Assembly: GCF_000003815.2 (NCBI RefSeq)
Contig: NC_049985.1
Location: forward strand, 315,678-379,677
Reading direction: 5' to 3'
DNA: 64,000 nucleotides
Source: Branchiostoma floridae
Lineage: Eukaryota > Chordata > Leptocardii > Amphioxiformes > Branchiostomatidae
The first letter of the stretch is position 1. Each line of letters opens with the position of its first letter. This document shows positions 11,901-41,239 of the stretch, piece after piece. Position numbers and translations under genes: made by a program. The notes below the pieces were generated by a model. That model was not told where the DNA came from and did no database searches. It was given only the letters and a program-made list of their open reading frames with translations.

Positions 11901-14900
11901 GTCGCACCCCTGTGGTCCGTGCTGTTCTTCTTCATGATCTTCACTGTGGGACTTGACACACAGGTAAGCTGATGGGCTTATGAAGGGAGAGGGATGGGCC
12001 CTGCCTTCCAATACCGGCCACTAGACACAGTTGATAATAACGTACTGAGTAATTTTGCTGAAAACATGTCTGTCTCCCCCTGTAGTTTGTGATACTGGAG
12101 TCTTGTATTTCTGGAATCTGCGATAAAACGGGGGTCCTGTGTTTGAGGAGGTGCCTTGAGCACATACCAGCCTCATTACTCACACCTTGAATTAGGGGTG
12201 CGGCTTATTACCTCAAACACTGCTCTGTGTGGATGTATAATGTTACCTTTTTGTCTATATTAAAAACCTGTATCTGTTTTCACCTACAGTTTGTGATGCT
12301 GGAGACCTGTATTACCGGGATCTGTGACGAGTTTCCCCACATCATGGGGAAGTACAAGACTTTGGGAAGTGTAGACATGGATTGTTGTCCATTAACAAAG
12401 CTTATGTCTGTTTCCCCCTGTAGTTTGTGATGCTGGAGACGTGTATTACCGGGATCTGTGACGAGTTCCCCCACATCATGGGGAAGTACAAGACCTGGGT
12501 GCTGCTGGTGGTGTCTGTCGTCATGTATTTCCTGGGACTCACCTGCGTCACCAACGTAAGTTAGGGGAAAGGGAAAATGAGATTGACCAGACATACAACT
12601 GTGCCTGTTTTCCCCAAAACTGATAAACTGCAGGCCTGGGGCCTTTCCCTGACAGGAGTGGCTGCAAAGGTGTATGAACGCCTCCAACCAAACAGAGTAT
12701 CTACTTGGTTTATTGAATTTATTCCTTTGCGCCCAAACAAGAACTTTCCTGTCTATTGTTTGATAAAATAATCGACAAAATATAGAAGTTTATATATAGC
12801 AAAAGGAAGCAATCATCATTTAGGTCAATTCAAGACTGCGTACGAATAACATAAAGGGTAGGCAGCAGTCGGCTAGACTTCAAACTACGCTTCTAAGCGG
12901 CTATGTCAAGCGGGTTCACCCTAGTTAGACCACAGATTTTGTTGTCTCTTTAACACATCCTTGGTGTACCACAACCTCTGTTGCCTGACAACTTGTTGAT
13001 GGTGTTGATGCAGTCACTGGATCTTTCAACTTGCATTTTCAGGCTGGCATGTACTGGCTGAACCTGATGGACTGGTACTCTGCTGGGTTCTCTCTGATGG
13101 TGCTGGCTTTCTTCATGTGTGTGGCCATCTCCTGGGTGTACGGTAAGTACTGTGTGTGTGTGTCTGTGAGTGTGTCTGTGTGTGTGCACGTGTGTGTGTG
13201 GGGGGGGGGGGGTTTCCCTGGTGGTGCTGGCTTTCTTCATGTGTGTGGCCATCTCTTGGGTGTACGGGAAGTTCTGTTATGTACTGCATGATATATGCTG
13301 CATAGATTGTCAAACACTCTTCCTTTACACTAAGGGCTATGTGTGTGTGTGCGGCTTTGAACAATGCTACTATAGTATTTGATGGTAAAAGGTATGACCA
13401 TGTTTTTTGCTTTTTTCTCCAGGGTTCCAGCGTTTCTGTAAGAATGTTCAGGAGATGATCGGCTACCAACCCAACTACTACTTCAAGATCTGCTGGGCTG
13501 TCATCTCCCCCATGGTTCTGCTGGTATGTACTGAAGTAAAGTAGTGGTGGTGATAGTACATTTAGTAGTATTTGTTTGGGTAGGGGTAGAAGTGTTAGTA
13601 ATACAGCGATCAGACTGACAGTACTGTAGTCTCCATCATTGTTTAGTTCCTTTGCATAGAGTCGTAGTCTGTATAGACCGACTGACAGAAGTAGTGGTAG
13701 TTGTAGTTGTAGACAGAAGTACTAGGCATCCTTCTGTCTTACACTCTTACACATTGACAGTGGGCTCGAGGTTGCCAAAATGTGTAAAACTGTAGGCTTA
13801 TGATGACATTGTCAATATGTCATGCTAATATTGAAATGGTCCAGCATAGTTTTGTAAAATCCAATAAATTTCAAGCCTCTCATGCAATAAATACTATGTT
13901 TGTTTTTCCCTTAAGATCATAATGCTTGAGATTTACATTACTGTGAGCTATGAGTTGGCCATAGGTTTTGGAGGATCAATGTTGAGTGGCCCAGTATATA
14001 TCCTTGCGGTACACCTTTTTGACTGTGTTCGCCTTTCCCCCTACAGTTCATCGTGGTGTTCTCCATGGTTGTGCATGTGCCTGCGTACTACGGACCGTAC
14101 CAATACTCTAACTGTGCCATCTGTATCCCTGGTTCTTGTTTAATCAGTTCTTCTCTCCCTACAGTTCATTGTGGTGGTTGTGCACGTGCCTGCGTACCCT
14201 ACCAGTACCCTAACTGGGCCATCTGTATCCCTGGTTCATGTTTAACCATTGCTCTTCTCTCCCCCTTACAGTTTATCGTGGTGTTCTCCATGGTTGTTCA
14301 CGTGCCTGCGTACTACGGCCCCTACCAGTACCCGTACTGGGCCATCTGTATCTATAGTTCATGTTTTAATCACTGCTTTTCTCCCCCCCTTACAGTTCAT
14401 CGTGGTGTTCAGCATGGTTGTGCATGTGCCTGCGTACTACGGACCGTACCAGTACCCCAACTGGGCCATCTGTATCGGCTGGTTCTTGTTTAACCATTGC
14501 TATTCTCTCCCCCTACAGTTCATCGTGGTGTTCAGCATGGTTGTGCATGTGCCTGCGTACTACGGACCGTACCAGTACCCTAACTGGGCCATCTGTATCG
14601 GCTGGTTCATGTTTAACCATTGCTCTTCTCTCCCCCTACAGTTTATCGTGGTGTTCAGCATGGTTGTGCATGTGCCTGCGTACTACGGACCCTACCAGTA
14701 CCCCAACTGGGCCATCTGTATCGGCTGGTTCATGGCCATGCTGTCCATCGTCATGGTGCCCCTGTTTGTGGTGCTGGCCATCCTCAAAGCCAAGGGCAGC
14801 TTCATGGAAGTAAGTCTTCTCGCATTCAAGACTTGGTTGTATCTTCTAGTGCCTACGTTATACATGTGAGTCATTGGATGACTGGCGCCAGCTCTAAAAT

Positions 14901-18452: not shown

Positions 18453-20052
18453 GTTATAATAAAGGGATTGTTTATTTGTGTTTTGATCAAAGAAGTTGCT
18501 GACCCGACCACACACGGACCCACCAGGGTCAGCTTAATTAGCTACAGGCAGGCGGGACAATCCGGGGCTCATTCCCGGACCGCCCTTCAAAGCGTGCGGA
18601 CGCGAAACCTCTTCTCTCTCCAAGCGCGATGGCCGAGTTCGATTTTGCAGAATGGTCCCAGGCAGCGAAGCTGACCCCAGCTACGGTCAAGGCCTTGGCC
18701 AAGGCCGAACTTGCGGAGAAGGAAGCCCTTCTGTGTGTTACTACCGACATGCTGCAAATACTGGATCTCTCTGTTGGCCAGTACGCCCTGCTATGCAGGG
18801 CAACCACTAAACTGCAAGCGGCGGCCGGGGCAGCGAAGCCCGCCAAGACCAAGGCGACAGTCACCCTGGATGACCTGAAAGCGGACAAGGAGCTGTCCGA
18901 CCTCCTGTCCCAGGTGGAAGGACTCGACGGTCTCCTGACGGACGGCGCAGCGGCAGCTCAGCAGACCGGTGACGACCAGGCGTCTTTTTACCTGCACAAC
19001 AGCGCCCCAAAGCAAGGTGAGAAACCCCTACTTATACCGGAGTTCGTGGACTCCTTCACCCAGCCTGAGAACGACCACGAGATTGCACGCGACGGTCAGA
19101 CGTCCATCATACTGCGGACCAGCCGCTCCCGCCCAAAGCTGGAGTCGATCAAAATCCCCGCGTGGTCGGCTGCCAATGCTAAGATCATGGCCGCGCTTAT
19201 CCGCGCCGGAAAAATCTCCAACAAGCAGGACATCGAGGACTACCTCGCATATACGGTGAAAGTGTCCGAGTTGTTCGAGGTGTACGACGTACCGTCTGTC
19301 ATGTTGTACGACAACCAGTACAGAATCCTACAGAACCGTAACGGTTTTCGCTGGGGAAGGGATTCCGAGCACCTACACTCCCGCTTTCTGCGGATCCGGA
19401 TGGTGCCCACGTCGAGGCCCCAGCAGCGCAAGACCACAACATCCCGCGCGAAGACTTCAGACGGCCAGGAGATCTGCCTGAACTTTCAGAACCCCGGAGG
19501 ATGCAGGCGACCGGCAGGCACATGTCAATATGCCCACGTGTGCATTACACCGGGTTGCGGCGAGTCACACCCACAGTGCGAACACGCCAGGAAGACCACT
19601 AAATAGCAACTCATGGACAGTCCATTAAACCTGGCAACATGGGAAACAGAACTGCGAAATGACAAGGACCAAGAGTTCCTCTTAGACGGACTATCAAATG
19701 GCTTCAAAATTCTACCGGCAACCAGCGACATTACCCAAGTAGAGTGCGACAACTACAAATCTGCTACAGACCCAGCTCATCGCGGTAAAGTGGAAGCGCA
19801 ACTTAAGGAAGAGATGCGGAAAGGGAATTATGAACTGAGTCGAACAAAACCAGCCATAGTCAGTGCTCTCGGCGCCATCCCGAAAAAGGGTTCTGACGAT
19901 ATAAGACTGATCCATGACTGCAGCAGACCTGAAGGCTTCGCCCTGAACGACTACGCCGAGGCGGAGCGCTTCAGCTACCAGACACTAGACGACGCAGTAA
20001 AAATGCTACAACAAGGTTCCTACATGGCCAAAATAGACTTAAAGAGCGCCTA
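18453..20052 (+). mobile_element. Truncated DIRS/Ngaro-like (tyrosine-recombinase type) retroelement
   Basis: The segment holds a 5' leader (18453-18628), a gag-like frame (18629-19606) and the start of a reverse transcriptase (19613 on). It stops abruptly at 20052, where the 392-bp repeat begins. The RT remainder, RNase H, recombinase and 3' terminus are missing. The assignment to DIRS/Ngaro-like elements comes from the form of gag (a late Cys/His cluster) and of the RT N-terminus. The truncation coincides with a suspected assembly join rather than a natural end. Confidence 0.65.
18629..19606 (+). CDS. Retroelement gag-like protein (325 aa)
   Basis: The frame starts at an ATG in good context (GCGATGG). 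It has an Ala/Lys-rich helical first third, a central conserved-looking part (residues ~160-250; SRPKLESIKIPAWSAANAKI), a basic Ser/Arg stretch and a C-terminal Cys/His cluster: CLNFQNPGGCRRPAGTCQYAH, then CITPGCGESHPQC. That cluster is typical of gag from DIRS/Ngaro-type elements and would bind the element RNA. The codon use is GC-rich against an AT-rich surround, as expected for a recent insertion. The frame is intact. The neighbouring RT frame starts 6 bases after its stop. Family assignment is from memory of motif layout only. Confidence 0.65.
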   Translation: MAEFDFAEWSQAAKLTPATVKALAKAELAEKEALLCVTTDMLQILDLSVGQYALLCRATTKLQAAAGAAKPAKTKATVTLDDLKADKELSDLLSQVEGLDGLLTDGAAAAQQTGDDQASFYLHNSAPKQGEKPLLIPEFVDSFTQPENDHEIARDGQTSIILRTSRSRPKLESIKIPAWSAANAKIMAALIRAGKISNKQDIEDYLAYTVKVSELFEVYDVPSVMLYDNQYRILQNRNGFRWGRDSEHLHSRFLRIRMVPTSRPQQRKTTTSRAKTSDGQEICLNFQNPGGCRRPAGTCQYAHVCITPGCGESHPQCEHARKTTK

Positions 20053-20125
20053 CTGCCCCCTTTCGCATACGATAATCTCATTAAAAACCCATTGTCACGG
20101 TCTCAGTTCCATCTTTCTAACTTAA
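19613..20125 (+). pseudogene. Retroelement reverse transcriptase, N-terminal fragment
   Basis: The genuine part runs from 19613 to about 20052 (146 codons). It has LLDGLSNGFKI, SALGAIPKK, IRLIHDCSRPEG and MAKIDLKSAY, i.e. RT motifs up to motif A (the first catalytic Asp lies in AKIDL). The frame then continues about 24 codons into the 392-bp repeat, which is not RT sequence. Fingers and the first catalytic Asp are present; the YxDD box and everything after are missing. It cannot encode an active enzyme as assembled. Confidence 0.75.
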
Positions 20126-23547: not shown

Positions 23548-26496
23548 CTAACGGGAGAGTACCACGATGGGGAATGTATCAAGATAGTCCTCCCGACCCG
23601 TTATCTCCATGGCAACCGCGGCTAGCGTGCTGCCATTGGTGGGATGCTTCATGTTGGGAGAGATTTCAGCCAATGGCACAGCCACATGAGCGAACCGAAG
23701 GATGTCAGCGTCGGGCACTTTTTTTGGCGACGCCTCTGAGGCGAAGCCGTTACACTCGTGATCGAATTCCTCTTCCTTATCGACTACGCTATATTCCAGC
23801 ACCTCTGACCCCCAGAGGGAGATGTCAAGGTCGATTGTGTGGAGGCCATGCTTGTTGGGGTCGCGCACGCGCAGTAGCGACTTTTCTATCCCATAGAGGA
23901 AGGTTTTGAGGCTTGTCGGCGTCATTTCCGTCAGGATCTTCACGGCCATGTTGATGAAATCAGGCTGGTCGGTTTTAAGCTGAGGCGGTGTAAGGAACGG
24001 CGAAGACACCTTCAGCACCAGGACTTTCTTCCTCAGCAAGGCGAGGGCATCTCTAAGGTTCTTCCTCGGCTCGATGTTTGACCCGAGGGAGAGGTGGACC
24101 AGGCTGTCGTTGAAATCCTATGGTGTTCTCTCGATCAGGACACCGACTGGGTCGGCGAAGCGCAGGGCCTGTGGCTTGCGGACTCGCACTTGGATGCACG
24201 GGGCCTGGACATATTGAAATGAAAGTATTATGTTGGATGATAGTTTACTTTGGTAGACTTGTTTGTGGCAGTTAGGCTCGAAACACGGCACCCCTGGCCG
24301 GTAGGCAAGTTTTACTTTGGAGGGAGAGTTTTACTTTGACCTCATTCCGTTTCGGCAAGTTTTCTCAAAAGACAGTCGAGTCTTCGGACTCACTCTGCAA
24401 AATATGTTTTTTTATTCTACCCCGACAAAAAGGCATATGTAAAATGAGATACAAGCGTTCTACTGCAGTGCCAAAGAAAGCGGCCAGGGGGGCCCAAATC
24501 TTATCATTTTTTTATATCAAGAGCTAACCACATACTAAATTCCACAATGATCCATGAATCGCTTCTACATCATGCTGCATGCTAATTCACAGACAGTCAG
24601 GGCAATAATAAGCAATAGTTGAAATTTTCATTTTTTGTCATTAATGATGTTTAGATTAACATGTACATTAGTTACATAAAACGTACCTTGTAGAGAGCAG
24701 TGCAGATTCTGGCCACATCAGTCGCTAATTTCTCCACCAAGTCAAATGACGTTGACTCCACGTAACTAATGATGTTTTGGCAAACACCCGTGTAGTTCAC
24801 GGAATTGCTGACGTCACCACTTTTTCCTGCCTTGCGCACGTCACAACCCAGGCGCAAACTGATGACGACTTCCTGTTTTTTCCCGATCTCGTGCTGGCTG
24901 ATGCCGATCTCGGTGCGGCATCGCAGGTTGTCTATCTCGATTACGTCATAGCCTCTTCCGCTGGGAAGCCTACAAGTACTCAGTGACATCTGAAAATTGA
25001 TATGGGTATCATAGCATTAGTCGCACACCTCTGGAGCAAAGAATCTGTCATTTCTGTAACCTGAACAAGGTTGAAGATGAATCCCACATTTTATCAGATT
25101 GTAGTTTATATAGTAACGATATAGAAATATTCTTTTTAGTAATGTTATAGGAAAGTTCTCTCACTTTGAATCTTTGTCTAGTGTTGAAAAATTCATTTTT
25201 CTTAAGCTTAAGAGTTTTGATCAAACGATATTATACAAACACATCTCAAGCTACATTTTTAACATTACGAAGCAACGAGAAGAAGCCAAACAAATGTATT
25301 AGAATTTTTTAGAAGCCATGTTTTAGATTAGTCCTAGAAACCACGTGTACTGTATTACGACCTTTTGTATCTATATGCCTGTACTTAGCCCGATAGGGCA
25401 TGAATGTGCAATAAAGACTATTACCATTAAACCCTAGGGAAAATGTTGTGTTTCCTGTTTCCCTGCCTACCCTAGAAAAAAACTGCCGACCCTAGACTTT
25501 TTGGGGGGGTGGGCAGTGGAGTCACATAGCTTCCAGTTAGAATTTTTCAGCCTGCTTCCTAATGAAGTAAAAACACTGCTTGTCCTATCTAGTGAAGGAT
25601 GAATGCATCTATTATGCACAACATTCAAGTTTGACATTGAAAGACACTTAGTGTCCTCATGTATTTCAGTTTACTTTGTCTTTGTTCAACTGCATTGTAA
25701 CAAGTCACACTAAAGGTTTGGCCAGCCTAAAAAGATTACAAGAAAAAAAGATGATCCCTACCTACCGACCCCAAGTTTTTTAATGACTGGAATAGAAAAC
25801 GCAGCATACTTTCCTAGGCCTAATTTTTGTTTTTGTTTATTCATTGGTGGTAACTTTACAGTTACAGTGCATAATAGCACTCAAGGGTACTGTATTACAT
25901 ATTTAAGTTAAAATCTTTACAGATGAGACAACCAGATTACATAGTATTACACAAGTATACGACGTACTTCAGCCAACTACGACGTAGTTTTACAATTCAT
26001 AACGTACTTTTGCGAACTACGACGTAATTCGCACAACTGGCTCCAAAATAATTCGACTTAACTTCCTGAAGTACGTCGTTGTTGCTTGAGGTTCCATCTG
26101 ACCTAACTACGTCGTAATAAACATGTCAAACTATTTTCAGCCAAACTAAAAGTTAGTAAAACATTGCTTATAGTAGGGTTCATTAAGCACAACCAGGAGT
26201 ACTTACTTCCAACGTTTCGGTGTCTGTCAGACACCATCATCAGGGTAGAATGGCTGGATACGATTCTCGCTGCTACCGAAACGTTGGAAGTAAGTACTCC
26301 CTGGTTGTACCTAAAGAACTTCAGTACTATATGAATAATTGACAGCCTAAAGAAACTATTTACGGATACGACATGGCTGTATTACATCGTGTATGACTTA
26401 CTCCATCAACAATCTATAACTCACCTTGTCATGAACATTTATTTTTTCCCCGAACACAGAGAACAGGATTGTGGTAACTTTCTCACGTATCGCCAT
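23548..26496 (-). CDS. Dihydroneopterin aldolase-HPPK fusion (folate pathway), with one in-frame TAG
   Basis: Three minus-strand exons: 26425-26496 (24 codons, MAIREKVTTILF..), 24687-24989, and 23548-24204. Donors are GTGAGT and GTACGT, acceptors TTTTCAG and TGTCCAG, and the phase is 0 throughout; reading through the TAG gives 343 codons. Exon 2 and the start of exon 3 form a dihydroneopterin aldolase (FolB-type): the conserved Tyr (NYTGV), Glu (FDLVEKLA) and Lys (VRVRKPQAL) are present. Exon 3 continues as 6-hydroxymethyl-dihydropterin pyrophosphokinase (FolK-type): SLGSN near its start, DQPDFIN, GIEKSLLRVRD and TIDLDI with both metal-binding Asp. The usual GPR before DLD reads GLH. Fungal FOL1 fuses these two domains to DHPS; no DHPS follows here. 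A TAG at 24118-24120 lies between the domains. Animals are generally held to lack these enzymes. Contamination is unlikely given the introns. Confidence 0.82.
24118..24120 (-). other. In-frame TAG between the two enzyme domains, also a candidate splice acceptor
   Basis: The exon 3 frame reads ...GVLIERTP, TAG, DFNDSLVHLSLGSN. A single CAG to TAG change would explain it. The same AG could act as an acceptor (ACACCATAG|GATTTC): joined to the phase-0 donor of exon 2 it keeps the frame and removes the stop, but also deletes 28 aldolase residues including the conserved Lys. No pyrimidine tract precedes it, so this use is doubtful. Confidence 0.8.
25020..25430 (+). mobile_element. LINE 3'-end remnant in the folate gene intron
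   Basis: The plus strand at about 25022-25130 reads LEQRICHFCNLNKVEDESH then ILSDCSLYS. This is the C-terminal Cys/His motif found after the reverse transcriptase of many non-LTR retrotransposons. The segment ends with LARxGHECAIKT-like codons and AATAAAG near 25412, as such elements often do. Stops break the frame. It lies antisense in intron 1 of the DHNA-HPPK gene. Confidence 0.65.
25955..26115. repeat. Cluster of ACTACGACGTA motifs
   Basis: The core ACGACGTA or its reverse complement TACGTCGT recurs at about 25960, 25980, 26018, 26073 and 26103 with irregular spacing and both orientations, often as AACTACGACGTARTT. It may be a degraded array. No function is evident. Confidence 0.5.
26189..26308. 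repeat. Foldback element with ~33-bp arms
   Basis: The arms at 26189-26221 and 26275-26308 are inverted copies (ACAACCAGG(G)AGTACTTACTTCC, then AACGTTTCGGT) differing by one inserted base. The loop holds GTCTGTCAGACACCATCATCAGGG. It lies in the folate gene intron. A CCAACGTTTCGG...CATCAGGG pattern accompanies Penelope-like elements in several animal genomes as I recall; the link is unproven here. Confidence 0.75.
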
Positions 26497-35775: not shown

Positions 35776-38700
35776 TTATTCTATCAATGCTGTGTGTATG
35801 TCTGTAATCACTAAGATGTATCTAAGAATGCGCAAAGTCTTAAGTGAGACGTCGATGTCAGGATGTTCTGTGTCTTCGCCATGGATTCTCCGCCTCATCT
35901 GAAGTGCTTGCTCAATATAGCTTGCGGCCTTTCTGTAATCACCAAGGTCTCCCCAGGATTTACCCAAGTTGTGAAGTGAGTCGGCGATGTCAGGATGTGC
36001 AGTGTCCTCACCAAAGATACTCCGCACCATCTGTAGTGCCTGTTCATGATAGTTGACAGCCTTCCTGTGATCACCAAGTTTTCTCCAGTCGATACCTAAG
36101 CTGTTAAGTGATCTGGCGATGTCAGGATGTGCAGTGTCCTCACAAAAGATACTCCGTGTCATCTGTAGTGCCTGTTCATGATAGCTGACCGCCTTTCTGT
36201 AATCACCAAGGTTTACCCATCCGTTACCTAAGTTGTGAAGTGAGGCGGCGATGTCAGGATGTGCAGTGTTCTCACCATAGACACTCTGCCTCATCCGTAG
36301 TGACTGTTCATCATAGCTGACCGCCTTTCTGTTATCACCAAGTTTTCTCCAGGCGATACCCAAGTTGTTAAGTGAGCTGGCGATGATAGGATGTGCAGTG
36401 TTCTCACCATAAACAATCTTTTCCATCTGTAGTACATGTTCATGATAGGTAACAGCCTTTTTACAGTTGCCAAGCTTTGTCCAGGCGGTACCCAAGTTAT
36501 TAAGCGATTTCACGATGTCAGGATGTGCAGTTTCCTCACCATAGATACGCCGCATCATCTGACGTGACTGTTCATAATAGATGACCGCCTTTCGTTGATT
36601 CCCAAGGTCACTCCAGGCGTTACCCAAGTTGTTAAGTGAGCCGGCGATATCAGGATGTGCAGTGTTCTCACCATAGATAGTCCGCCTCATCTGTAGTGCC
36701 TGTTCATGATAGCTGACCGCCTTTCTGTAATCAAAAAGGTCGTACCAGGCTCCGCCCAAGTTATTAAGTGAGGCGGCGATGTCAGGATGTGCAGTGTCCT
36801 CACCAAAGAAACTCCGGTTCATCTGTAGTGCCTGCTCATAATAGCTGGTCGCCTTTCTGTGATCCCCAAGGGTTTTCCAGGCGGTACCCAAGTTGTTAAT
36901 TGAGATGGCGATGCAAGGATGTGCAGTGTCCTCACCATAGATACTCCGGTTCATCTGTAGTGACTGTTCAAAATAGCTGACCGCATTTCTGTTATCACCA
37001 AGCTCACTCCAGGCGGCACCCAAGTTGTTAAGTGAGTCGGCGATGTCAGGATGCGCCGTGTCCTCACCATAGATACTCCGCTTCATCTGTAGTGTCTGTC
37101 GACGATAGTTGACTGCCTGTCTATGATCACCAAGGTTCGTCCAAGCCATACCCAAGTTGTTAAGTGAGTCGGCAACATCACTATGTGTAGTGTTGTCACC
37201 ATGTTTCGATAGATAATTGTGCAGTGTTTGCTCTGTGCATGTCAAGAAATGGTGAAAATCGCACAGACTTTTATATACCTCTGCTTGCAGTTTTGAAGAA
37301 TTGTCAAAGAAGATCGGTGGCTTTTCCAAGTGCTGAGAATTGGCCAGATGTGAAATAAAGTGCTTCAGGGGTCTCTCTGTGTAATAGTACCTCATGAGCT
37401 GCTTTGTATTTGAGATGTAAAACACTTTCCGTAATTTCTCCCCAATGCCCGTATCGGACGATATTGACGATAAGATTGACATGTTCTCCACCTGCCCACG
37501 GTTATTCATGTATGTCCGCCGCCTCAGTTCTGCTGAGATACTGACCAGCACCATCAAGTGATGTGCGTTCTCACTACTGACGACTCCACTGTCTCTTAGG
37601 TTCTGAATAGTCTCCCAGATTGTGGTCGGTTCTATGCCATAAAGTAGCGCCCAATAGGACACTGCAAGACTCGAAAATCGATATATTTCCTTTTTTACAT
37701 TCAGCAGCCTCGCAGTAAGAACCTGGGTCTGAAACAGTGGTACATTGTCACTCAGCACAATATCTGCCATTAACAAATGAACTGTCCGGTCGTTTTCTTC
37801 CAGTTGCTGAGTCCATAACGACCTGTACTCATCGACCAAGCCCTGATCTCCTGCGATAAAGGACACATTTCCAAGTACACTAGCAAGGTGGTAGCCTTTC
37901 TTTAAATGGTACGTAAGGTCGTCTTTTAGGATGTTGGTCATGTTGCTTGGAGTGTGAATAAGTTCACTTGATACTGTGTTATTTCTACCTCTGCCCAATG
38001 GAGTCTTGCATGCATGCGGCATGGCTCCATCGAACGCAAAACCGCGCGGTGTTACTGAGTCATAAAACCAGCTGTCCAGTGGGTCGTTTGAGTAGAAATC
38101 ATTCAGAGACTTAATCCCCATGGCCGGGAAAATGGTTTCTCCCAGATTTATCACTTTGAGATGCAAATAATGAGTAAGATTGCGGAAATAACTAACGTTA
38201 TGTTCGGTTTCCTCCTCTACTAAAATGGCAAACTCCAGATCAGAGTATGGAGTTACCAACCCTGTGGCTTGTGAACCCAAACCTATCATTGCGTACTTAC
38301 AGGGAGGGGGACCCATTACCTCCATGCATTCATCTACAAGGCCAGCTATGAACGTTTTACGCTGATCAACAAGTGTCTGAAACAATGCTTTAATTGCTTC
38401 CACTCTCTGCATCTCCACTTCTTTTATCTTAGGGTCATTCTCATCAACACTATATGGATCTACCTCTTGTTCAATTCTTTTGATCTCTTTTTCTACGTAG
38501 TCCCTATCAGCCTTCAAACTCAATTTGTATTTCTCTGTATCATCACTGTCTACCTTCTGTTCCATCTTCAGGACTTCCTTGACAAATACTTGAGTTATTT
38601 TCTGAATTCTTTCCCCTATGTCTTCTCTCCTTGACCTTACCAGTGCTGCATTACAGAGTGCTGCAGCCTTGGTGAAGTCGCCTCCGTCCTTTGACTGGAT

Positions 38701-41239
38701 TCCTCTCTTCAGATAGACTTCGCCCAGCTTGTACAGGGGCTCTGCCTCCTTCCTGTGTTGACCTGTAACAAATGTTACAAATCATGATGATCGTAATGTT
38801 GTATTCTTATTCTCTTGTCTGTAGCCTTTTGAGTGTGAACATGCAGCACAATTTGGATGTTTTTGGTACCGATACAAATGAGGACCCTGTTTACATCATT
38901 GATATAATACGGAGGATCTTCAGAACTAGAGGCATGGTAGACTAATTTGACTAATTGATGATAATTTATGTAAGTCTTACCTTTAACATGAACGGTCTTA
39001 AGCGCAGCTGCAAAGCTTTGTTCTGCTGTGTCCAGGTCTCCACTTTTCATGGCATTGCAGCCCTCCTGTAGATGTTCTTCATATGTTCTGTAACAACGAA
39101 ATGCATACCATTCACAAAGTAACACAAAATTTAAAACTCTACAAAATGATTTATTAGTACGAATTTCATCTATTCTGGTGGTAAAACGCTACTGAAGTAA
39201 AGGGGAACTATTTTTCATTACTATGAGATCATGTACTGATAACAGTTTTAAAATTCTAGCATTCTTAAACTTTGTTTACTGCTACGCCAAAAGTAGTTAC
39301 TCGAGCAACTGGATATGATTTTAGAACCGGTCAGACGTTTCAACTACTATCCAGTACTTTTCATTAGTGACACTTTGCTTACTGCTGTTTGGCAAGGTAG
39401 AAATGGGCATTGCGTTCTTTTTTCACACTAATGTAAAATTTCAAACCTGTCCCCGTCGCCCTGTGTTGCGTTTGAAACTTGTCCTGTTGTTCTTCTGTAA
39501 AGAAAAATAAGGTTGTCATGAATCACATGTCCTAAATGGGTTAATGTATATTATGCACAAGTCATTTAGACTAATTGGATTAACTGGTGATAATTGTAAG
39601 TTAAGATTTTTGGGAGTAGTTTACGAACGGGTCCGAATCCTACAATCCTTACATTTTCCTTCCCACTATGACACCTGCCCAAAAAACAGATTCGACAAAC
39701 AGATTTTGTGTTATCTTCGCATATTTTTATCATATGATAAAGCTTGATTTAAAGCGTTAAGGTTCAACTCCTACAATTACAATCTTTTTAACAAGTTACA
39801 ATGATAAGAACTTATATCAAAGGATCATTTCATTTCAAACACTTATGAAAAACCAAAAAAGAAATGAGTGACACTAACTTGTCATCGTCAACTCGTATCG
39901 CGTTTTCAGCTTTCTGCAGTTCCGGGGCACTGATAAGGAATAATAAAATGTCTATTTTATGATTATTCTTCAATTCATATACATGTAACAGTCTGTAGAT
40001 ACCTGATACAAAGATAGTCAAAATCAAATCAGAAATAACCAGCCTTCCCTGTACCTACCTGTGCAGACGGCTCGTGCCGTCATCGATGACGTCGCTAGAG
40101 GGAGTAGCTGAGGAGGGAAAGACGTGGTCCTTCCGCCCTCTGACGTCATGTTGTCGCTGCGTACGTGCTGACCTCTACGTTAACAAGTCATGAATAATAA
40201 ACTGCTGTGAGATCGAGTTTTCAAACGCATAATTTTTTCGTGTGTATGTTGTAAATGTGATGACTGGCTCTTGGTATAGGAATAATTGAATGGATTCTTG
40301 ATTGTCGTCATGTCGTCCTTCGACAAGCCAGAACAAACATGGTGAAAATACACTCACTATTTTTTCCTAAAAATACAGAACACACGAAACGAAATCATAA
40401 CCTTGTAGGTACAAGAAAAACAATGAGCTGCCATGTCAATGATCATGAAATAAGTTACTATCGTTCTACTGGAAAACTTACCAACTAAATACTTCTGTTT
40501 CATGATTTTCCGTTCAATGTCTGCATAGTTCACTCACCTTGATGTTTTGTATGGTTATGTCCTGCCTGATTTTTGTCGTATGCAGTAAGCGATGAACAAG
40601 GACAACTGTCCCCTGAACGTTGTGACACCGCGCCAGTGCCTTGTTGTACAGAGCAGACGCTCTGGTCAAGTCTCTAGTGTCCAGAGTTTCTGTTCCTCTT
40701 TTCAGGTACACGTCACCGAGGCTTTTCATCGCTTCTGTTTCTAACATGCTATTGTCCTTTACAATTCCCTCTACCAACAACTGTGCGTATCCAACCAGCA
40801 CAGAGTCTGTGTTACCACCGGCAGCCCATTTCTTGTCCAGGTCTTGAAACTTTGCTGCCACCTTTGCAGGTGTAGTCGTCTCATTGTCTTTTGTTGGCTG
40901 TTCTTTACCCTGTGACCCCTTTGACAACACCCTTTGTAAAAGTTTCTCCGCGTATTCGTATCGGTGTTCTATACCTTCTCCCTGATCCCGATGGTCACAC
41001 CGGACCACAGCAGCTATGTAAAGCGCCAAAGCCCTGTTGAACTTCCCTACGTCCTTCCCGAGTCTTCCCTTCTCCAAGTTCACGTCGCCCAGACTTTTGA
41101 GCAGCTCCACTTCCGCCAGCCTGTCCATGTCAGCCATGGCGTCCACCAGGGCACGGAGGTAGCCTGTCTCCGCACGGGCTAGTCCGTACCTCCTGCCCTT
41201 CGCGTCCGCCTCACGGAGTTTCTCACAGACCCTCAACAT
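35776..41239 (-). CDS. Nucleotidyltransferase-TPR protein, 1330 aa
   Basis: Six minus-strand exons: 40538-41239, 40059-40156, 39879-39929, 39447-39494, 38981-39087 and 35776-38762. All GT-AG junctions close in phase (1331 codons with stop). I start at the ATG at 41239 (CGCCATGT). Part one (residues ~1-400) has three helical-repeat modules with a [10 protein letters not shown]-type signature ([36 protein letters not shown]), which look like degenerate TPRs. Next comes a nucleotidyltransferase-like domain around residues 480-650, with [20 protein letters not shown]: the G-S...D-x-E pattern of the GlnD/DUF294-type fold. The C-terminal ~460 residues are ten 44-residue kinesin-light-chain-type TPRs (SLNNLG.AW..LGD.RKAV.Y.EQ.LQM) plus a partial one. 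The substrate is unknown; similar genes are multicopy in some invertebrates as I recall. The stop codon is part of an AATAAA. Confidence 0.85.
35830..37200 (-). repeat. Ten-copy 132-bp coding repeat (TPR array)
   Basis: Each 132-bp unit encodes one 44-residue TPR ending in a [10 protein letters not shown]-like linker. DNA identity between units is visibly high (for example ATGTCAGGATGTGCAGTGTC recurs in most), so the array probably changes in copy number by unequal exchange. No stop or frameshift is seen within it. Confidence 0.9.
39286..39375. repeat. Dispersed repeat, partial copy (intron of the TPR gene)
   Basis: The core AGTAGTTACTCGAGCAACTGGATATGATTTTAGAAC...TCAGACGTTTCAACTA closely matches the foldback element at 54667-54830. 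Only the left part is present here. Confidence 0.7.

What the first reader, a model, noticed from the sequence alone, without database searches (positions are those of the whole stretch)
23548..26496. A spliced dihydroneopterin aldolase-HPPK fusion in an animal genome
Two consecutive folate-biosynthesis enzymes, normally absent from animals, are encoded in one three-exon gene whose phases close. Key aldolase residues (Tyr of NYTG, Glu of VEKLA, Lys of RKPQAL) and the HPPK DLD metal site are present. Unlike fungal FOL1 there is no DHPS domain, so the product could not complete folate synthesis alone. It may salvage pterins, work with another enzyme, or be a relic. The introns argue against bacterial contamination. 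An old horizontal transfer or retention from a common opisthokont ancestor are both possible.
Basis: partly seen in the sequence, partly recalled or inferred. Interest (0 to 1): 0.8.

Follow-up and report, generated by a model that had tools for sequence, protein, structure and literature searches.

The report
Interrupted copy of lancelet pterin gene

Summary
The gene is real, at the stated place, on the minus strand. Exons 2 and 3 are well supported; exon 1 is not. Splice phases close, but the frame does not: an in-frame TAG at 24118-24120 falls exactly between the FolB half and the HPPK half, so this copy, as assembled, encodes only the first enzyme. The same genome (513 Mb, most likely Branchiostoma floridae) holds three further copies on other contigs, with the same intron and a sense codon at that place. 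Codon models reject neutral evolution for both halves on every branch, this copy's HPPK half included, so the stop looks young, allelic or erroneous. Copies C3 and C5 keep the catalytic residues best. No dihydropteroate synthase was found. The lancelet folB-folK fusion, transcription of an orthologue in B. belcheri and a likely bacterial origin were reported by Maguire et al. 2014. Added here: four copies under constraint, the nonsense codon, a first domain that small trees place with FolX (epimerase) rather than FolB, and a GTP cyclohydrolase I locus about 30 kb from one copy.

The parts
26425..26496 (-). Putative exon 1 (24 codons, GTGAGT donor)
   Evidence: borders, phase. No convincing counterpart at the other three copies. 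Tentative; may be a leader or untranslated exon.
24990..26424 (-). Putative intron 1; holds an inverted repeat at 26191-26306
   Evidence: inverted repeat
24687..24989 (-). Exon 2: most of the FolB/FolX-like domain; begins with ATG directly after the AG acceptor, as in all four copies
24205..24686 (-). Intron 2, phase 0, same position in all four copies
24121..24204 (-). Exon 3, first part: end of the FolB/FolX-like domain (Lys of RKPQAL; GVLIER)
24118..24120 (-). In-frame TAG between the two domains
   Evidence: the other three copies have a sense codon here
23551..24117 (-). HPPK domain, 189 codons open, not reached by ordinary translation in this copy
   Evidence: Pfam HPPK 1.6e-21, NCBIfam folK 69.2 bits against cut-off 54.1
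23548..23550 (-). Stop codon that ends the HPPK frame

Best explanation
The locus is one of four dispersed copies of a lancelet gene that encodes a two-domain pterin enzyme: a FolB/FolX-like domain followed by HPPK. In the best-kept copies (C3, C5) the protein is expected to take dihydroneopterin (or its triphosphate), made by the animal's own GTP cyclohydrolase I. The first domain would cleave or epimerise its side chain, and the second would add a pyrophosphate to 6-hydroxymethyl-dihydropterin. No DHPS was found to use that product for folate, so its use in the animal is unknown: a pterin branch outside folate, or exchange with microbes. The window's copy carries a nonsense codon between the domains, in this assembly or allele, and makes at most the first enzyme. 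Shown: copies, shared intron, stop, constraint, domain identity, no DHPS found. Inferred: species, activities, pathway, recency of the stop.
For: Profile searches of the whole genome find four HPPK and four FolB places, the same four loci (DNA search). Same phase-0 intron and same ATG in all four; between copies the exons are the best-matching stretches. Codon model: omega 0.23 overall, 0.13-0.37 by branch and half; omega = 1 rejected in 12 of 12 tests (p 0.0064 to 5e-9), the window copy's HPPK half included (0.37, p 0.0064). Catalytic residues kept best in C3 and C5. DHPS-specific model TIGR01496: 0 matches, while it rings in 13 of 14 control genomes. The broader PF00809 rings only at three neighbouring C1 exons; the two that were tested match methionine synthase at 7.7e-30 and 1e-25. 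GTP cyclohydrolase I matches lie at two loci. GC3 of the four copies (0.56-0.68) is like that of three neighbouring genes (0.49-0.65).
Against: HPPK residues L45, W89, H115, R121 and F123 (E. coli numbering) are replaced in all four copies; C3 also has Ile at 53, and C5 has Ser at 43 and Ala at 90. So pyrophosphokinase activity is not assured even in the best copies. No transcript data were available here. A sequencing or assembly error could explain the TAG. The omega tests use only four sequences on long branches. Exon 1 is unsupported. The third Pterin_bind exon (L019) was not tested on its own.
Confidence: 0.62

Rival explanations
1. The window copy is a working fusion gene and the TAG is a sequencing or assembly error, or a rare allele captured in this assembly.
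For: The HPPK half after the stop has no further stop over 189 codons and aligns to its end with the other copies; it evolves under constraint. C3, C5 and C9 read through. In the HPPK half the copy has no more odd-one-out residues (13) than the others (13-16).
Against: This copy has Leu-His where C3 and C5 keep the Pro-Arg of GPR or APR. In the FolB half it has more odd-one-out residues (12) than the others (4-8). Its omega is the highest of the four branches, though not significantly so (p 0.16).
Confidence: 0.33
2. The stop is bypassed: read-through, or splicing to the AG of the TAG itself, which would join exon 1 or 2 in frame to the HPPK half.
For: TAG ends in AG and the next codon is in frame 0 with the ends of exons 1 and 2. 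The HPPK half is still constrained.
Against: The 15 bases before that AG hold only 6 pyrimidines, against 10 and 11 at the two predicted acceptors.
Confidence: 0.05
3. The gene descends from the opisthokont FOL1 (folB-folK-folP) by loss of folP, not from a bacterial transfer.
For: Fungal and amoebozoan genes have the same domain order (Maguire et al., PMC4224340, passages). My trees hold no fungal FolB, so they cannot exclude it.
Against: Maguire et al. found folK with Planctomyces maris (1/94%; weak, 0.939/27%, with reduced taxa) and folB among prokaryotes only weakly (0.614/13%). Bacterial HPPKs of known structure score better (E 4e-13) than yeast FOL1 (1.5e-6) or the bifunctional protein 7mpy (2.5e-9).
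Confidence: 0.2
4. Bacterial contamination in the assembly.
For: The proteins look bacterial.
Against: An intron shared by four copies on four contigs of 25-34 Mb; neighbours are an LRR gene, a TPR gene and a TRIM-NHL gene; GC3 like that of neighbours; Maguire et al. report a transcribed orthologue in B. belcheri.
Confidence: 0.01

Closest known systems
Branchiostoma floridae folB-folK fusion gene (Maguire et al. 2014, PMC4224340)
   Same: Same fusion, most likely same species; no folP; native contig; probable bacterial origin; orthologue transcribed in B. belcheri.
   Different: The passages that I read treat one gene, on AC150408.2. Here there are four copies, this one with an in-frame stop. 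Which copy theirs is could not be checked.
SulD-type bifunctional DHNA-HPPK, PDB 2cg8 (organism and gene name recalled: Streptococcus pneumoniae sulD)
   Same: Two domains in the same order, no DHPS (listed).
   Different: Only a distant relative: FolB E 2.7e-4, HPPK E 5.7e-6, weaker than many one-domain bacterial enzymes.
Fungal FOL1 (folB-folK-folP)
   Same: FolB then HPPK in one chain.
   Different: No DHPS domain here, and none found elsewhere in the genome.
FolX, dihydroneopterin triphosphate 2'-epimerase of gammaproteobacteria
   Same: First domain groups with FolX (100/99 and 100/98); 41.8% identity to Vibrio pelagius FolX; the C5 copy shares its KPHALRF-DSV stretch.
   Different: Fails the NCBIfam FolX cut-off (94.2 against 152 bits); FolB-like C-terminus (GVLIER); long branches.

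Membership tests
FolB, dihydroneopterin aldolase | Pfam FolB and NCBIfam folB equivalog scores above cut-off | tested here: met
   97.5 against 31.8 bits; 75.6 against 72.15 bits
FolB, dihydroneopterin aldolase | Catalytic Tyr, Glu and Lys (roles recalled) | tested here: met
   Present in C7, C3 and C5; C9 has a 7-residue deletion, Tyr to Asp and Lys to Arg
FolB, dihydroneopterin aldolase | Groups with FolB rather than FolX in a tree | tested here: not met
   Groups with FolX, 100/99 in 19 rows and 100/98 in 48 rows; long branches, no fungal or planctomycete rows
FolX, dihydroneopterin triphosphate epimerase | NCBIfam equivalog cut-off | tested here: not met
   94.2 against 152 bits
FolX, dihydroneopterin triphosphate epimerase | Epimerase rather than aldolase activity | not testable with these tools
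   Needs an assay
HPPK (FolK) | Pfam HPPK and NCBIfam folK scores above cut-off | tested here: met
   77.3 against 25.7; 69.2 against 54.1
HPPK (FolK) | DLD metal site and Asn55 | tested here: met
   D95, D97 and N55 kept in all four copies
HPPK (FolK) | Catalytic-loop W-G-P-R and the H115, R121, F123 set | tested here: not met
   R92 kept in C3 and C5, Cys in C9, His in C7; W89, H115, R121 and F123 replaced in all four
Trifunctional FOL1 | DHPS domain | tested here: not met
Working folB-folK fusion gene | One open frame over both domains | tested here: not met
   TAG at 24118-24120 in this copy; open in C3, C5 and C9

The most novel reading that the evidence does not exclude
Lancelets keep a small family of acquired pterin enzymes (FolX/FolB-like plus HPPK) under selection for a pterin branch that is not folate. 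It is fed by their own GTP cyclohydrolase I, one locus of which lies about 30 kb from one family copy, and individual copies have shed one or the other activity.
Probability: 0.27. Interest if true: 0.62.

Novelty: already known. Interest (0 to 1): 0.36.

Why it matters
Animals are held to lack the middle of folate synthesis. A chordate that keeps two consecutive steps under selection, in several copies, without the third, raises a clear question of what the product is for. The gene itself was reported in 2014. What is added here is evidence that the genes are constrained rather than relics, and a warning that the copy in this window is not intact.

Tried and rejected
Contamination was rejected (shared intron, four large contigs, neighbours). 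That the genome's Pterin_bind hits might be a DHPS was rejected: the two of three exons that I tested match methionine synthase and the DHPS model finds nothing. Splicing at the TAG was considered and thought unlikely. An earlier argument of mine, that this copy lost a residue of the HPPK loop, was dropped: bacterial HPPKs are no longer there, so the other copies may have gained one. A pattern-based search for viral relatives of the HPPK half confirmed none of 65 candidate stretches; phages gave 7 records for the FolB half, at most 33.6% identity.

Gaps: no planctomycete genome could be reached, so the published folK grouping was not retested. The genome-contig scan found 16 loci that share short exact stretches with the query (best segments 31-45% identity), so it does not show who is closest; 14 of the 16 went into the alignment (L005 and L016 left out).

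Rows in the FolB trees: one search used 4 lancelet rows, 14 of the 58 plasmid records and one Salinicoccus row. One search used the 4 lancelet rows, 13 of those 14 (Azoarcus left out, and Salinicoccus too), 24 of the 25 loci fetched from the 241 matching genomes (one with a stop left out), and 7 of the 15 loci fetched from the 58 matching genomes (the other 8 gave no row in my tblastn at E 0.01).

The count (25 of 25 genomes with folB just before folK) used rows that I picked by hand because both genes were listed on one contig; the fair statement is at least 25 of the 60 genomes.

The PTPS family search (PF01242) did not complete.

Full report
What is there. On the minus strand between 26496 and 23548 lie a FolB domain and an HPPK domain (Pfam E 9.2e-28 and 1.6e-21; NCBIfam folB 75.6 bits against a cut-off of 72.15, folK 69.2 against 54.1).

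The spliced frame holds a TAG at 24120-24118, codon 154, directly after the end of the FolB domain (GVLIERTP) and before the HPPK domain (DFNDSLVHLSLGSN). As assembled, this copy encodes only the first enzyme. The first ATG in frame after the TAG lies beyond the LGSN stretch of HPPK (translation), so a start there would not give a whole HPPK.

Copies. The window is G000:C7:315678-379677 of a 513-Mb genome in 431 contigs. A DNA search found three more places with both exons, on C3, C5 and C9, at 75-85% identity, and a short fragment on C9:18083534-18083713 whose frame holds a stop. Profile searches for HPPK and for FolB each return four places, at the same four loci. All four have the same phase-0 intron and an ATG directly at the start of exon 2. 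At the junction, C3, C5 and C9 have a sense codon. Among the 10-kb stretches compared, the exons are the best-matching parts. Outside them there are scattered weaker matches of up to 326 bases between full copies, one of them in intron 2 of C5 and C7 (197 bases, 68%).

Exon 1. At the other three loci I searched the 4.6-5.0 kb upstream of exon 2. The best local match, at C5, scores 47.5 against a maximum of 47.0 (mean 31.6) in 200 shuffles, at a place chosen because it matched. That is inconclusive, so exon 1 stays tentative.

Selection. A codon model fitted on the four copies (best unrooted tree C3+C9 | C5+C7; TAG column left out) gives omega 0.23. Letting one branch at a time have its own value gives 0.13-0.37, and omega = 1 is rejected in 12 of 12 tests (four branches, three site sets; p from 0.0064 to 5e-9). 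The window copy is the highest (0.32 overall, 0.37 in HPPK) but not significantly different from the rest (p 0.16, 0.21). So both halves were maintained for much of the time since the copies parted, and the stop is young, allelic or an error. Four sequences on long branches cannot date it.

Active sites. HPPK half, E. coli numbering: N10, T42, N55, E77, R82, R84, D95, D97 and I98 are kept in all four. R92 is Arg in C3 and C5, Cys in C9, His in C7; P91 is Leu in C7; P43 is Ser in C5 and C9; G90 is Ala in C5. L45, W89, H115, R121 and F123 are replaced in all four; position 53 is Ile in C3 and Phe in the others. The 14 bacterial HPPKs that I aligned all read WGPR. Passages of PMC3261883 describe Phe54 and Phe123 (S. 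aureus) as conserved ring-stacking residues and a contact of Trp89 with the pterin. The lancelet HPPK is thus atypical, and its activity is an inference.

Aldolase or epimerase. Among plasmid records the strongest matches of the FolB half are annotated FolX genes of Vibrio (41.8%, E 2e-18), against about 35% (E 4e-16) for enterobacterial FolB. In a tree of 19 rows the lancelet domain joins FolX with 100/99 support, and in one of 48 rows with 100/98. Passages of PMC3405516 say that FolX is carried only by gammaproteobacteria, and Maguire et al. quote that E. coli FolX has under 1% of the aldolase velocity. Against it: the FolX family cut-off is missed by far, the folB cut-off is met, the C-terminus is FolB-like, the branches are long, and other FolB-domain proteins of unnamed Pseudomonadota reach similar identity (39-47%). 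I leave the first activity open.

No DHPS. PF00809 rings at three C1 exons; the two that I tested match methionine synthase at 7.7e-30 and 1e-25. The DHPS-specific model finds nothing here while it rings in 13 of 14 control genomes, 12 of them over the cut-off. Small exons could be missed, but methionine synthase exons of about 50-62 residues were seen.

Origin. Maguire et al. 2014 (PMC4224340; I read the abstract, passages and one section) report the B. floridae folB-folK fusion on AC150408.2 among animal genes, a transcribed orthologue in B. belcheri, folK with Planctomyces maris (1/94%; 0.939/27% with reduced taxa), folB weakly with prokaryotes (0.614/13%), and a probable transfer. They also mention a questionable folB-folK of Nematostella and folB of Trichoplax. 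In the listings of my other searches (one search listed 20 of 459) I saw no other paper that, by title or abstract, treats the lancelet gene. I could not reach planctomycete genomes. In Pseudomonadota (phylum of Devosia, G006) the FolB half finds matches in 241 of 299 genomes (best E 2.3e-27), in Bacteroidota (G005) in 58 of 198 (best 2.4e-7). At least 25 of the 60 Pseudomonadota genomes have a folB match within 311 bases before a folK match on one strand, in another frame. A fusion could arise from such a pair; fungal FOL1 has the same order, so this does not decide the origin.

Neighbourhood. The window's neighbours include an LRR gene, a TPR gene and a TRIM-NHL gene. GTP cyclohydrolase I matches occur at two loci, on C1 and C5 (one exon of the C5 locus checked). 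The parts that I hold of the two loci match at about 87% over 585 bases. The last match of the C5 locus ends 30.4 kb before the C5 folB-folK copy, on the same strand.

Verdict. A real, native and already published kind of gene.

Noticed in passing
G000:C5:8617632-8624169 and C1:7079374-7085107 (parts in L100, L101): Two GTP cyclohydrolase I loci, similar to each other; the last match of the C5 locus ends 30.4 kb before the C5 folB-folK copy. Both show two places that match nearly the same profile stretch (about 46-84), possibly alternative exons.
   Followed up: partly
window 14196-14734: Tandem array of a 123-base unit, 4.4 copies, within a frame that matches Pfam SNF (sodium:neurotransmitter symporter), three stretches, the best at the C-terminal end of the profile: a repeated transporter exon.
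   Followed up: partly
window 26191-26306: Inverted repeat in putative intron 1 that resembles the mir-2041 hairpin on both strands, below Rfam's gathering score (56.9 and 53.7 against 70 bits).
   Followed up: no
L031 (C9:1939000-1948999): The C9 copy keeps an open frame but has a 7-residue deletion in the FolB half, with Tyr to Asp and Lys to Arg, and Cys in place of the GPR arginine: a second copy that may have lost activity by another route.
   Followed up: partly
L033 (C9:18083534-18083713): Fragment of the last 57 codons of the HPPK half with a TAA inside; a 417-base stretch directly before it is 87% identical to one about 2.6 kb upstream of the C9 copy.
   Followed up: no
window 35776-38781: 1001-codon open frame with about ten TPR units (132-base period, 79% matches) and a weak DUF294 nucleotidyltransferase match.
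   Followed up: no
window 18542-20125: Two abutting open frames (354 and 172 codons) in a GC-richer stretch, no Pfam match at 0.01; looks like a mobile element remnant by eye.
   Followed up: no
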